This document shows positions 44,384-49,144 of a stretch of DNA of 50,017 bases, piece by piece. The DNA is from Candidatus Alistipes intestinigallinarum (GTDB taxonomy: Bacteria > Bacteroidota > Bacteroidia > Bacteroidales > Rikenellaceae). Location: assembly GCA_019115745.1 (NCBI GenBank), contig DXDA01000028.1, positions 1 through 50,017 of the forward strand, in the 5' to 3' direction. Below the pieces are notes generated by a model, which did not search any database, was not told the DNA's origin, and was given only the letters and a program-made list of their open reading frames with translations. The position numbers were made by a program, and so were the translations under genes. Each line of letters starts with the position of its first letter. The first letter of the stretch is position 1.

Positions 44384-45253
44384 TCAGAGAATGATCTCAT
44401 CGTCGACCGTCCCCTGGTCACCCCAGCCCTCGATCGAAATCCCTTCGATGCGGATCGTCCCGTCGGCGATTGTCAGGTTGACCGTCACCTGCTTGCCGCC
44501 CTCCAGTTCCGGATAGGAGAAATCCGTCTCCGAGAGTTTCCAGGTGCGGCTCACGCTGCCGGCGTGGATCTCCAGCGTCACCTCCTCCGCCGACTGCGGC
44601 AGCAGCAGGAAGCTGACCTCTTTGTTTGTTGCGGTGAAGGTCTGCTTCGAGTCGTTCAGCAGGATCCGGCCTTCGGACAGCTCGACGCGGGCCGTTGCAC
44701 AGGCCGTGCAGCGCGTCTCGATCTGCGAGGCGTCGATCGACGGGTCCTCGACCGTGTACTTGACCACCAGCCGGTGCAGGGCATGACGGAACGTCAGCGA
44801 TACGGGCTTCTCCGATCCGACGCTCACGTCCGCGGCCGAAGCCCAGAGCAGGTCGCCCGCCGCATCCTGCGTCGTCGTGAAGTCGAAGCCTCCGTTCGAA
44901 AGGGTCTGCTTCGGGTAGCAGGCCTCGAAATGAACCTTCCCGCCCTCGGAGGCGAAGGTCAGATCGCGCCAGTAGAGCGCCGTGGTGCCTATGCTGTAAT
45001 CGACGGTTGCGGCGCCCTGCGCATCGTCGTGGGCATAGAGCGTGAAGGTGTCGCCCGGGGTGAACGACCCGCTGCCGTCCTCCTCCAACTGCGGGGCGCG
45101 TGTCGCGGCAATCGCCGTCGTGAAGGTGATCCGACGCTCTTCGGAAGGGGTCGGCGTCCCGGAATCTCCGCCTGAGTTGCCGGATTCGTTTTTGTCGCAT
45201 CCGGTGCTGATTGCGGCCAACAGCAGGGCCGCTCCGTAAATCATTCGTTTCAT
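44384..45253 (-). CDS. Fimbrillin-family lipoprotein
   Basis: A 289-residue lipoprotein (lipobox LLAAISTGC, Cys19, then DKNESG). The body is a fimbrillin/Mfa-like fold: GSFTPGDTFTLYAHDD, the YWRDLTF strand, FEACYPKQTL, and the conserved SLTFRHALHRLVVKY. Fimbrillin-type lipoproteins form stalks of type V pili or act as monomeric surface proteins. It appears to be a paralogue of the N-terminal domain of the preceding gene, sharing the same order of motifs (ISF/ITF, GD-LY, YP, DLL-A, TF-HALHRL-V). It lies 33 bases after the IdeS-like gene in the same transcript. Pilus assembly genes are absent here, so a non-pilus role is likely. Confidence 0.87.
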   Translation of the reverse strand: MKRMIYGAALLLAAISTGCDKNESGNSGGDSGTPTPSEERRITFTTAIAATRAPQLEEDGSGSFTPGDTFTLYAHDDAQGAATVDYSIGTTALYWRDLTFASEGGKVHFEACYPKQTLSNGGFDFTTTQDAAGDLLWASAADVSVGSEKPVSLTFRHALHRLVVKYTVEDPSIDASQIETRCTACATARVELSEGRILLNDSKQTFTATNKEVSFLLLPQSAEEVTLEIHAGSVSRTWKLSETDFSYPELEGGKQVTVNLTIADGTIRIEGISIEGWGDQGTVDDEIIL

Positions 45254-45286: not shown

Positions 45287-46981
45287 TTATTCGGCATCGG
45301 CCTGTGAGGCCTGTTGGGCGAAGTATTCCTCCCATTTGTCCTGCGCCAGCGGGAGCAGGATCAGGCGGGTGATCGCAATAGGCTTGCTGCCCTCCATGTA
45401 TCCGGTATCGTAGGCCGTATAGGTTGCCCCTTCGGGGTATTTTTCGTAGCGAATTTTAAAACGGATACATCCGACGCCGAACTCCTCGTCATAATCCCGA
45501 TCGTTGTTATCGGCCATGTAGATGGCAGACACGTCGCCATTTTCATCGAATTCGGCACCCCAGATGGTCTCAAAGTGCCCCTCCTTAAGCGTGCCTTTGC
45601 ATACGGCGATTCCCTTTTTGTTGGCCAACGCATCCTTGATCGTATTGTTGAAGCGTTCCTTGCCCAAACCTCCGACACTGTAACTCAGAAGGTCTGTCGA
45701 CGTGGAGTTTACAGGGAAGACATCCTTGAAATATCCGGCCGGGTTATACGGCTCGATATAGGGCTGGCTGACCGGTTTCTTCCCTTGAATGAACCAGTTG
45801 ATACCTTCATCCGTATATCCGGCCTCATTCTTGAACGAATCGCAGAAACTCTTGAAGATATCGCTTTCCGGCATTTTCTTCAACGGATAGTTGTAGTCGG
45901 GACCCTGATATTTGCCGTAGCGCTCGATGTAGCTCTTGTTCTGTTCGATCCACCAGTGCAGCAGGTTCGAAGCCGCGGCAGCCCAACACATGTAACAGTC
46001 TACGCCTCCGACCACCGCGTCCACCTTGTTGCAATCATACCAGCCGTACTCGGGCTTCCAGGCAAGCGCGTAATAGTCATACAGCCGGTCGATGAAATAC
46101 TGTTTCCAGGCGCTCTCCTCCGGAGCTTTGATGCCGTAGACCCACACCTTGCGGTTGGCCCACTCGGGATCGCCCGTACTGGTCAGATTCAGCCGGATCG
46201 TCAACTGCTTGCCGGCCTCGAACTCCGTGAGGGGCTGGCCGTTGATCTGGTCGGGGGCCTTGTAGACGACCTCACGGACCGCAGTCGGGATTTTCAGCAA
46301 CCCCTCTTCGTCGCGGTAGGTATCGACGGCCTGCGGGAAGATTACCGCCTCGTACGTGCCGTCGCTGTTCGTGCACGGTGTGATCCATCCGAAATCGTCC
46401 CCGGCGGCCGTCACCTCGCCGGTGAGCAGGTCGACCGTAGCGTTCATCCGGCTGCGGAGACTCGGCGTGGAGACGCCCTCGCCCTGGATTTCGACACGCA
46501 GCCGATGCAGGGCGTGTGTGAAGGTCATCGTGGCGCGGTAACTGTCGGCCGGGATGCTCTGTCGGGCGAAGAGCAGGTCCGAGGCTGCAAAGCCTTCGGC
46601 GCTTTGGTTGTCGGCAAGCGTGAAGGCGGCGTGTGTCGGATCGGCCGCCGTTTCGGGCAGAACGGGGTAGTGGGCCGCAAGGGTCAGTTCGCCCTCGCCG
46701 AACTCGCTGCGCCGAAGCCGCGGCTGCCACTCTCCGGAGGTGTAGGTCAGTTCGCGGTAGCGGGTTTCGCTGCCGTTGTCGATGTAGAGGCCGACGCAGT
46801 CGCCCTCCGAAAAGTTGCCGGCACCGCTTTCGTCCAGATCGGCACGGGTCGTGCGGGAGAAGGAGATTTCGAGGTAGTTGTCGTTCGGCCCGCCCGTCGG
46901 GTCAAGAGGTTCGTTGTTGCAGGCGGCCAGCAGGCAGATCAGCAGTCCGGCAGCCATTCTGGATCTCTTCCAAGTTGTCAT
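45287..46981 (-). CDS. Fimbrillin-like domain fused to IdeS/Mac-type cysteine protease, lipoprotein
   Basis: A 564-residue surface lipoprotein (lipobox LLICLLAAC, Cys21). I start at 46981; an ATG two codons upstream (46987) is possible, and earlier ones are not. Residues about 38-275 are a fimbrillin-like domain (GNFSEGDCVGLYI, FTHALHRLRVEI). Residues about 300-564 match the IdeS/Mac family (MEROPS C66): GWYDCNK with Lys319, then CWAAAASNLLHWW with Cys332, GHFETIWGAEFDENG with His469, and AIYMADNN with Asp491. In IdeS as I recall it these are Lys84, Cys94, His262 and Asp284; the His-to-Asp distance of 22 is identical. The C-terminal QDKW echoes QDSW of IdeS. The known members cleave IgG in the hinge. 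The substrate here is unproven. It heads an operon with a fimbrillin paralogue. Confidence 0.9.
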   Translation of the reverse strand: MTTWKRSRMAAGLLICLLAACNNEPLDPTGGPNDNYLEISFSRTTRADLDESGAGNFSEGDCVGLYIDNGSETRYRELTYTSGEWQPRLRRSEFGEGELTLAAHYPVLPETAADPTHAAFTLADNQSAEGFAASDLLFARQSIPADSYRATMTFTHALHRLRVEIQGEGVSTPSLRSRMNATVDLLTGEVTAAGDDFGWITPCTNSDGTYEAVIFPQAVDTYRDEEGLLKIPTAVREVVYKAPDQINGQPLTEFEAGKQLTIRLNLTSTGDPEWANRKVWVYGIKAPEESAWKQYFIDRLYDYYALAWKPEYGWYDCNKVDAVVGGVDCYMCWAAAASNLLHWWIEQNKSYIERYGKYQGPDYNYPLKKMPESDIFKSFCDSFKNEAGYTDEGINWFIQGKKPVSQPYIEPYNPAGYFKDVFPVNSTSTDLLSYSVGGLGKERFNNTIKDALANKKGIAVCKGTLKEGHFETIWGAEFDENGDVSAIYMADNNDRDYDEEFGVGCIRFKIRYEKYPEGATYTAYDTGYMEGSKPIAITRLILLPLAQDKWEEYFAQQASQADAE

Positions 46982-47092: not shown

Positions 47093-47242
47093 GTAACATG
47101 GGTTACGCATTTTATCGAAACCCCTTCGGAATCTCTTCTGACGGGGTTTTTGATCTCGTGAAAAATGGAGATGGAATATCAAATGGCGAACAAACAAACA
47201 TTCAAAGCGTCACATCGATCATTTTTTTTCGTCCGAAAAACG

Positions 47243-47250
47243 GAACTTTG
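47243..47250 (+). promoter_or_regulatory. Possible -7 box for ftsH
   Basis: GAACTTTG is a one-base variant of TAnnTTTG-like boxes, 26 bases before the ftsH start, with a T-rich run at about 47222-47229 in the -33 region. It is weak. Confidence 0.3.
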
Positions 47251-47275
47251 CCTCCGAATTCTATCTATTTGCAAG

Positions 47276-49144
<1,869 letters not shown>

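What the first reader, a model, noticed from the sequence alone, without database searches (positions are those of the whole stretch)
45287..46981. IdeS/Mac-like immunoglobulin-protease domain on a commensal surface lipoprotein
The C-terminal half aligns with streptococcal IdeS (family C66) through the active-site blocks: GWYD-x-x-K, C-[GW]-A-A-[TA]-A-x-N-[ML]-LHWW, GH/NH-x-x-x-[IL]WGA-[DE]-FD-x-NG, and AIY-x-x-D. Cys332, Lys319, His469 and Asp491 match IdeS Cys94, Lys84, His262 and Asp284 as I recall them, with the same 22-residue His-to-Asp spacing. IdeS is known for cutting IgG below the hinge. A full-length, apparently active relative fused to a fimbrillin-like stalk in a gut anaerobe would be a new kind of antibody- or glycoprotein-targeting surface enzyme.
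Basis: partly seen in the sequence, partly recalled or inferred. Interest (0 to 1): 0.93.

Follow-up and report, generated by a model that had tools for sequence, protein, structure and literature searches.

The report
Swappable protease heads on fimbrial mounts
A bacterium closely related to Alistipes carries a gene that joins a fimbria-type domain to a protease domain of the antibody-cutting IdeS/Mac family, with a conserved fimbria-type partner gene beside it; in one relative the protease part has been replaced by another while the surroundings stayed, so this is likely an adaptable surface tool that would cut a still unknown host defence protein.

Summary

Antibody cleavage is not established: T-Mac of Treponema denticola, the best sequence match among solved structures, cuts complement proteins and not IgG.

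The next gene (44384-45253), a second fimbrillin-like lipoprotein, sits beside 35 of 42 fimbrillin-fused Mac genes examined. At comparable score it was found in no PF09028-negative genome among 180 genus and 393 order genomes. Both proteins keep features of type V fimbrillins.

Partner divergence tracks the protease's fimbrillin domain (r 0.88), not its catalytic domain (r 0.58). Between two Alistipes loci with 95-99% identical flanks, the partner is 88% and the fimbrillin domain 69% identical, but the catalytic domain only 34%; there one matches a third species at 95%.

Best reading: a surface module with a more constant fimbrillin mount and exchangeable C66 heads. Export, assembly, activity and substrate are inferred.

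The parts
45287..46981 (-). fimbrillin-Mac gene, 564 aa: lipoprotein-type protein with N-terminal fimbrillin-like domain and C-terminal C66 (IdeS/Mac) protease domain
   Evidence: translation; Pfam PF13149 and PF09028; model, mean pLDDT 90.4
46919..46981 (-). signal peptide ending in lipobox Cys21 (LLAAC)
   Evidence: sequence; Cys at this column in 85 of 94 rows, the other 9 gapped there
46178..46882 (-). fimbrillin-like domain, residues 34-268
46844..46846 (-). Arg46 in the low-confidence loop after the first strand (pLDDT under 50 at 45-54), where type V fimbrillins are clipped
   Evidence: R 75 + K 8 of 84 non-gap rows; mechanism from PMC5789003 passages
45314..46159 (-). C66 catalytic domain, residues 275-556 (the exchangeable head)
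46025..46027 (-). Lys319 (IdeS Lys84)
   Evidence: 94 of 94 rows
45986..45988 (-). Cys332, predicted nucleophile (IdeS Cys94)
   Evidence: 94 of 94 rows
45575..45577 (-). His469 (IdeS His262)
   Evidence: 94 of 94 rows
45509..45511 (-). Asp491 (IdeS Asp284 by spacing; T-Mac Glu583)
   Evidence: D 86, E 6, N 2 of 94
45503..45505 (-). Asn493 (T-Mac Asn585 by alignment)
   Evidence: 93 of 94 rows; alignment
44384..45253 (-). partner gene, 289 aa, fimbrillin-like lipoprotein-type protein, 33 bp after the protease gene, same strand
45098..45100 (-). partner Arg52 in the flexible loop after the first strand
   Evidence: R 24 + K 14 of 38 rows; loop 51-55 pLDDT under 50
44387..44425 (-). partner Trp277 and C-terminal tail (277-289), candidate donor strand
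   Evidence: 277-288 mean identity 0.68 against 0.49 for 29-276, ninth of 249 windows; pLDDT under 50 at 279-289

Best explanation
This is a conserved two-gene module of Bacteroidales in which a C66 (IdeS/Mac-type) domain, predicted to be an active cysteine protease, is fused to a fimbrillin-like domain and is likely mounted at the cell surface together with a fimbrillin-like partner, and in which the protease head has been exchanged between lineages while the partner and the location stayed. Shown here: the domain make-up, the conserved catalytic positions, the IdeS/T-Mac fold of the model, the conserved neighbouring partner, the co-divergence of the partner with the fimbrillin domain rather than with the head, and one head exchange mapped on DNA (its direction is not known). 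Inferred: both proteins are exported as surface lipoproteins; the first strand of each fimbrillin domain is clipped at the conserved basic residue; the partner's conserved, flexible C-tail fills the gap in the protease's fimbrillin domain (donor-strand exchange as proposed for type V fimbriae). The protease's fimbrillin domain runs straight into the catalytic domain, so it has no free donor tail and would be a tip subunit. The head would cut a host mucosal defence protein, an immunoglobulin or a complement protein being the first candidates, and head exchange would adapt the module to another substrate or host.
For: Domains and fold. Catalytic positions. Partner: beside 35 of 42 fimbrillin-fused Mac genes, against 3 of 38 loci where no fimbrillin part was seen (in those 3 the Mac gene is cut or broken); Fisher p 2e-12. 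Genus: 17 partner copies in 13 of 180 genomes, all 13 PF09028-positive, 15 of 17 copies directly next to a Mac gene; 247-362 bits against at most 84 for any other fimbrillin scored. Order: 6 copies in 5 of 393 genomes, all 6 next to a Mac gene. No other gene recurs near the pair in more than 6 of 35 loci. Co-divergence over 26 pairs: partner against fimbrillin domain r 0.876, partner against catalytic domain 0.575, fimbrillin against catalytic domain 0.575; partial correlations 0.815 and 0.18. Head exchange: L014 and L002 share 95-99% identical flanks; in the head they are 45-70% identical by 100-base windows, while L014 is there 87-99% identical to L016. Proteins, as fimbrillin domain / head / partner: L014-L002 69/34/88, L014-L016 58/95/57, L014-window 73/32/75. 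Type V anatomy.
Against: Activity, export and complex formation were not tested. The substrate is unknown: the two characterised groups closest in fold differ (IgG for IdeS, complement for T-Mac). Seven of 42 fused genes have no partner beside them (L005, L008, L013, L037, L038, L043, L052; L013 and L037 are broken), so the partner is not always needed, and one intact orphan partner exists (L099). The fimbrillin domain also differs between L014 and L002 (window identity falls from 99 to 60% towards the boundary), so the mount is more constant, not fixed. The Trp before the C-tail occurs in 11 of 11 control fimbrillins, and several go on with a similar W-x-D-x-G-S/T start (clearest in L111), so the tail is only partly specific to the partner. 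Only one exchange was mapped on DNA, and L002 and L014 are MAGs. Related sequences are not independent points in the correlation.
Confidence: 0.6

Rival explanations
1. The protein is an antibody protease in the strict IdeS sense: the head cuts IgG (or IgA/IgY) near the hinge, and the fimbrillin domain is only a tether.
Against: T-Mac, slightly closer by sequence, does not cut human IgG (PMC11833123); the loop before the catalytic His is shorter than in IdeS and T-Mac; a plain tether does not explain the conserved partner.
Confidence: 0.3
2. The head cuts complement proteins (C3/C3b/C4, factor H) as T-Mac does, or another mucosal glycoprotein.
For: T-Mac is the best sequence match among solved structures and ties for the best fold match; Asn493 aligns with T-Mac Asn585.
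Against: Only one complement-cutting member turned up in my calls; identity is about 26%, too low to carry specificity.
Confidence: 0.3
3. The partner is a cognate inhibitor or self-protection protein of the protease, as some bacterial cysteine proteases have (recalled, from no call: staphostatin and Spi-like neighbours).
For: Adjacency and co-occurrence.
Against: Between L014 and L002 the heads are 34% identical while the partners are 88%, and the partner follows the fimbrillin domain, not the head; the partner's fold is a fimbrillin.
Confidence: 0.08
4. The partner catches the substrate for the protease, as the antibody-binding half of the mycoplasma MIB-MIP pair does.
For: A two-protein arrangement with a non-catalytic, adhesin-like half; the nearest solved structures are titled putative cell adhesion proteins.
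Against: The partner changes little when the head changes; no sequence link to MIB was tested.
Confidence: 0.2
5. General nutrient protease: a surface peptidase for luminal protein, with no immune target.
For: Spread over many Bacteroidales and, for the C66 domain, Akkermansia.
Against: The characterised relatives met in the papers seen (IdeS, IdeC, T-Mac) cut selected host defence proteins; the patchy spread, 10 of 393 order genomes, is unlike a core nutrient enzyme.
Confidence: 0.12

Closest known systems
T-Mac (TDE0362, C-terminal part C0362) of Treponema denticola, PDB 9arc/9mdk/9mdm/9mdo, PMC11833123
   Different: Ig-like (Big) domains instead of a fimbrillin domain; Glu583 where this protein has Asp491; longer loop before His; no fimbrillin partner mentioned in the sections read
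IdeS / Mac-1 of Streptococcus pyogenes, PDB 1y08, 2au1, 8a47
   Different: streptococcal enzyme without a fimbrillin domain; longer middle region and loop before His; cuts IgG, untested here
IdeC of Streptococcus canis, PDB 9hb1/9hb2, PMC12418751 (title and passages)
   Different: streptococcal; IgG-specific according to the paper's title
Type V fimbriae (Mfa1-5 and FimA of Porphyromonas gingivalis; PMC5789003, passages)
   Same: fimbrillin fold of both proteins, basic residue in the loop after strand 1, Trp plus flexible C-tail in the partner; the tip protein Mfa3 also carries extra sequence after its Trp
   Different: here the extra part is a protease, and only two genes are conserved together, with no anchor gene; clipping and polymerisation untested
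MIB-MIP antibody-cleavage pair of mycoplasmas (PMC12994834; listing and start of abstract only)
   Same: two-protein arrangement of a protease and a non-catalytic partner
   Different: no sequence relation tested; as I recall, the protease is of another class; there the partner binds antibody, for which there is no evidence here

Membership tests
Peptidase family C66 / IdeS-Mac (PF09028) | profile match above the curated cut-off | tested here: met
   80.3 bits against 20.3, E 1.7e-22
Peptidase family C66 / IdeS-Mac (PF09028) | catalytic Cys, His, Asp and Lys84 equivalent in register | tested here: met
   K319, C332, H469 94 of 94; position 491 D 86, E 6, N 2 of 94; His-Asp spacing 22
Peptidase family C66 / IdeS-Mac (PF09028) | papain-like fold of the IdeS subtype | tested here: met
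Peptidase family C66 / IdeS-Mac (PF09028) | active-site residues meet in space | not testable with these tools
   model coordinates not exposed; only the superposition is known
Peptidase family C66 / IdeS-Mac (PF09028) | cysteine protease activity | not testable with these tools
   needs purified protein
IgG endopeptidases (IdeS sensu stricto) | cleavage of IgG at the lower hinge | not testable with these tools
   the relative T-Mac lacks it (PMC11833123)
Type V fimbrillins | fimbrillin fold and Mfa_like profile | tested here: met
Type V fimbrillins | lipoprotein signal | tested here: met
   lipobox Cys21 (protease; 85 of 94 rows) and Cys19 (partner; invariant in 38 rows)
Type V fimbrillins | basic residue in a flexible loop after strand 1 | tested here: met
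   R/K in 83 of 84 non-gap rows (protease) and 38 of 38 (partner); loops pLDDT under 50. Cleavage itself untested
Type V fimbrillins (shaft type) | conserved Trp followed by a long flexible C-tail | tested here: inconclusive
   partner W277 invariant, tail conserved yet pLDDT under 50; but 11 of 11 control fimbrillins have the Trp and 3 of them also end in a tail of their own (L110, L111, L120), so the feature does not single out shaft proteins here
Type V fimbrillins | donor-strand assembly into a filament | not testable with these tools
   needs complex prediction or experiment
MIB-MIP systems | homology to MIB and MIP | not tested
   used only as an analogy

The most novel reading that the evidence does not exclude
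Gut Bacteroidales carry a modular weapon-mount: a type V fimbria-like assembly of two dedicated fimbrillins whose tip is a C66 protease, with the tip's catalytic head swapped by recombination between species so that the same mount is retargeted to different host immune proteins (antibodies in one lineage, complement or others in another).
Probability: 0.35. Interest if true: 0.9.

Novelty: new variant of a known kind. Interest (0 to 1): 0.72.

Why it matters
The characterised IdeS-type enzymes in the papers I saw come from streptococci and one oral spirochaete, where they disarm antibodies or complement. Finding them in gut-type Bacteroidales as part of a two-gene module with exchangeable heads would show how members of the normal flora may handle mucosal immunity, give a natural set of related proteases whose substrates can be compared on one kind of mount, and add protease-bearing subunits to what type V fimbrillins are used for. 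It makes one question directly testable: does the head alone set the target?

Tried and rejected
NCBIfam gave no match for either protein at E up to 1. Literature: nine library searches were run; one search returned nothing. Terms for C66, PF09028, IdeS with Bacteroides, Bacteroidales, Alistipes, fimbrillin and tip pilin listed no paper with a title or abstract start on a fimbrillin-C66 protein or its partner; the listed papers were not all opened, and subscription journals are mostly not held. The T-Mac paper does mention relatives in the CFB group (passage).

A further conserved gene was looked for around 35 pairs. The largest clusters (10 and 8 loci) are reverse-strand shadow ORFs of the two genes themselves; the largest other cluster, a reductase-like ORF, is in 6 of 35 loci, so none is claimed as part of the module. 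A promoter/terminator scan was at chance level. The inhibitor idea was set aside because the partner does not follow the head. Absences from the VIA-align and Foldseek lists are not used as evidence.

Control fimbrillins: 11 were fetched from the genus. A Trp is visible near the end of the matched part in 11 of 11; 4 end within two residues of it (L112, L115, L116, L117), 3 go on with a C-terminal tail (L110, L111, L120) and 4 continue into further sequence (L113, L114, L118, L119). The tail of L111 is fairly like the partner's. So only Gln280 and the last residues are held to be typical of the partner, and the donor-strand step stays an inference.

Limits of counts: only the top candidates of each genome were scored (up to 13 and 6). 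The 80 loci are the best 80 of 213, ranked by similarity to a query made of fimbrillin-fused proteins, so that class is over-represented. Search with the protease's fimbrillin domain alone hit 15 of 180 genus genomes at 1e-20; one of them (G006, a fragment) has no PF09028 match and no partner, and one partner-bearing genome (G159) is not among the 15. The co-divergence test used 26 loci with complete single-frame genes; broken or partial genes, L028 (same species as L021) and eight near-duplicates (L082-L086, L088-L090) were left out. Hosts of the loci were not tabulated.

Full report
What is there. It begins with a lipoprotein-type signal peptide (LLAAC, Cys21). Residues 45-268 match PF13149 (Mfa_like_1, fimbrillin-like) and residues 279-511 match PF09028 (Mac-1) at E 1.7e-22, 80.3 bits against a cut-off of 20.3. 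phmmer finds T-Mac of T. denticola first (1.1e-17), then streptococcal IdeS/Mac-1 (2.7e-14); a profile of 94 sequences finds both at about 1e-38. The neighbouring FtsH is 96% identical to that of an Alistipes MAG (L002), so the host is an Alistipes relative.

Catalytic residues. In the 94-row alignment (P0001 plus 93 of the 120 listed of 223 homologues) Lys319, Cys332, His469 and Asp328 are kept in 94 of 94; position 491 is Asp in 86, Glu in 6, Asn in 2; Asn493 in 93. In PMC11833123 (sections 10 and 11 and the first part of 16 read) the IdeS residues are Lys84, Cys94, His262, Asp284 and Asp286. The paper pairs Asp284 once with T-Mac Asn585 and once with Glu583; by spacing and by the alignment, Asp491 here corresponds to Asp284/Glu583 and Asn493 to Asn585. 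So this family is IdeS-like at one position and T-Mac-like at the other.

Substrate. T-Mac cuts C3, C3b, C4 and factor H and does not cut human IgG (PMC11833123). IdeS encloses the IgG hinge, with a loop before the catalytic His and wide exosites (PMC9759587, passages). In the profile alignment that loop is about two residues longer in IdeS and four in T-Mac than in this family. Fold and catalytic residues cannot choose between antibody, complement or another target. IgG is a candidate, not a result.

The neighbour. The gene 33 bp downstream on the same strand (44384-45253) encodes a 289-aa fimbrillin-like lipoprotein-type protein, 26% identical to the protease's own fimbrillin domain. Comparing window proteins with 80 named genome loci (best 80 of 213) showed this gene beside the Mac gene again and again. 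With profiles: of 42 loci with a fimbrillin-fused Mac gene, 35 have the partner adjacent; the other seven are L005, L008, L013, L037, L038, L043 and L052 (L013 and L037 broken). Of 38 loci where no fimbrillin part was seen, 3 have it (L017, L041, L059; their Mac genes are cut or broken) (Fisher p 2e-12). In L035 and L056 it lies upstream. No other gene recurs near the pair in more than 6 of 35 loci.

Independence from adjacency. The partner profile was built from adjacent genes, so I asked where else it occurs. In 180 genus genomes there are 17 hits of 247-362 bits, and the next best is 84 bits; the 17 lie in 13 genomes, all of which have PF09028 (55 of 180 do), and 15 lie beside a Mac gene. 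Of the other two, one runs off a contig end (G158) and one is an intact orphan (G001, locus L099). In 393 order genomes there are 6 hits of 263-362 bits in 5 genomes including the window's own, all 6 beside a Mac gene; the next is 90 bits. Only the top candidates of each genome were scored.

Head exchange. Over 26 complete pairs, partner distances follow those of the protease's fimbrillin domain (r 0.876) far better than those of its catalytic domain (0.575), although the last two are on one chain (0.575 with each other); partial correlations are 0.815 and 0.18. A second alignment with 25 pairs gives 0.87, 0.60 and 0.61. L014 shows why: against the window it is 73% identical in the fimbrillin domain, 32% in the head and 75% in the partner; against L016 it is 58, 95 and 57%. 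L002 and L014 share 95% identical DNA over 5.3 kb on the FtsH side and 3.0 kb on the partner side, then 99% over 4.7 kb. Inside the protease gene their identity falls from 99% at the start to 60% near the domain boundary, is 45-70% in the head, and returns to 97% and more within the partner gene. From L014 8801 to 9800, about residue 275 to the stop, L014 is 87-99% identical to L016, against 48-74% before it and 58-84% after it within the partner gene. The tract has two ends inside one locus, which a simple assembly chimera would not give. Which of the loci holds the older head is not known. A second pair, L024/L033, has heads 89-92% identical with fimbrillin domains and partners at 50-58%. 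The head tree puts L014 with L016 (100/99) and the window with L002 in another clade of 14 (100/99).

Mechanism. Shown: module, co-occurrence, head exchange. Inferred: surface display, strand clipping, donor-strand mounting, protease activity, immune target. An inhibitor role for the partner is unlikely, since the partner changes little when the head differs. A substrate-catching role is possible but should also follow the head. A structural mount fits best.

Novelty. C66 in gut Bacteroidales is not new as an annotation: NCBI names a Phocaeicola relative so, and the T-Mac paper mentions CFB relatives. The searches listed no paper on the fimbrillin fusion, the partner or the head exchange. I file it as a new variant of a known kind.

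Noticed in passing
Genus genomes, for example L078:2333-7205: Most of the 55 of 180 genus genomes with PF09028 hold a second, divergent C66-like group with short matches around the Cys and His blocks; several have two such genes a few kb apart (ORFs of about 580 and 1000 aa, for example G030, G057, G074, G113). None of those four has a partner-level match.
   Followed up: partly
L075:6849-9849, L077:6908-8855, L080:6908-8855: Akkermansia genomes carry tandem C66-like genes (two or three in a row) in a separate deep clade of the head tree.
   Followed up: partly
L044:7261-7779 and L047:7280-7768: Two Barnesiella/Porphyromonadaceae-type Mac genes with another N-terminal part have a small ORF (163-173 aa) just upstream, perhaps a different kind of partner.
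   Followed up: no
L099:4764-5609: An intact orphan partner gene without a Mac gene beside it, in a genome that has a complete pair elsewhere.
   Followed up: partly
L013:7848-9569 (L084 looks like the same locus), L009, L022, L029, L037, L040, L042: Several relatives of the Mac gene are interrupted by stops or frame breaks, which suggests loss of the gene or MAG sequence errors.
   Followed up: no
L060:232-4384: A Mucispirillum contig holds C66-like ORFs on both strands.
   Followed up: no
L051, L058: Mycoplasmopsis lipofaciens and Mycoplasma bradburyae encode C66 proteins at 36 and 35% identity, among the closer non-Bacteroidota matches.
   Followed up: no
window 47165-49144: FtsH gene next to the module; of the named loci, L002, L004 and L014 also show FtsH beside the pair.
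   Followed up: partly
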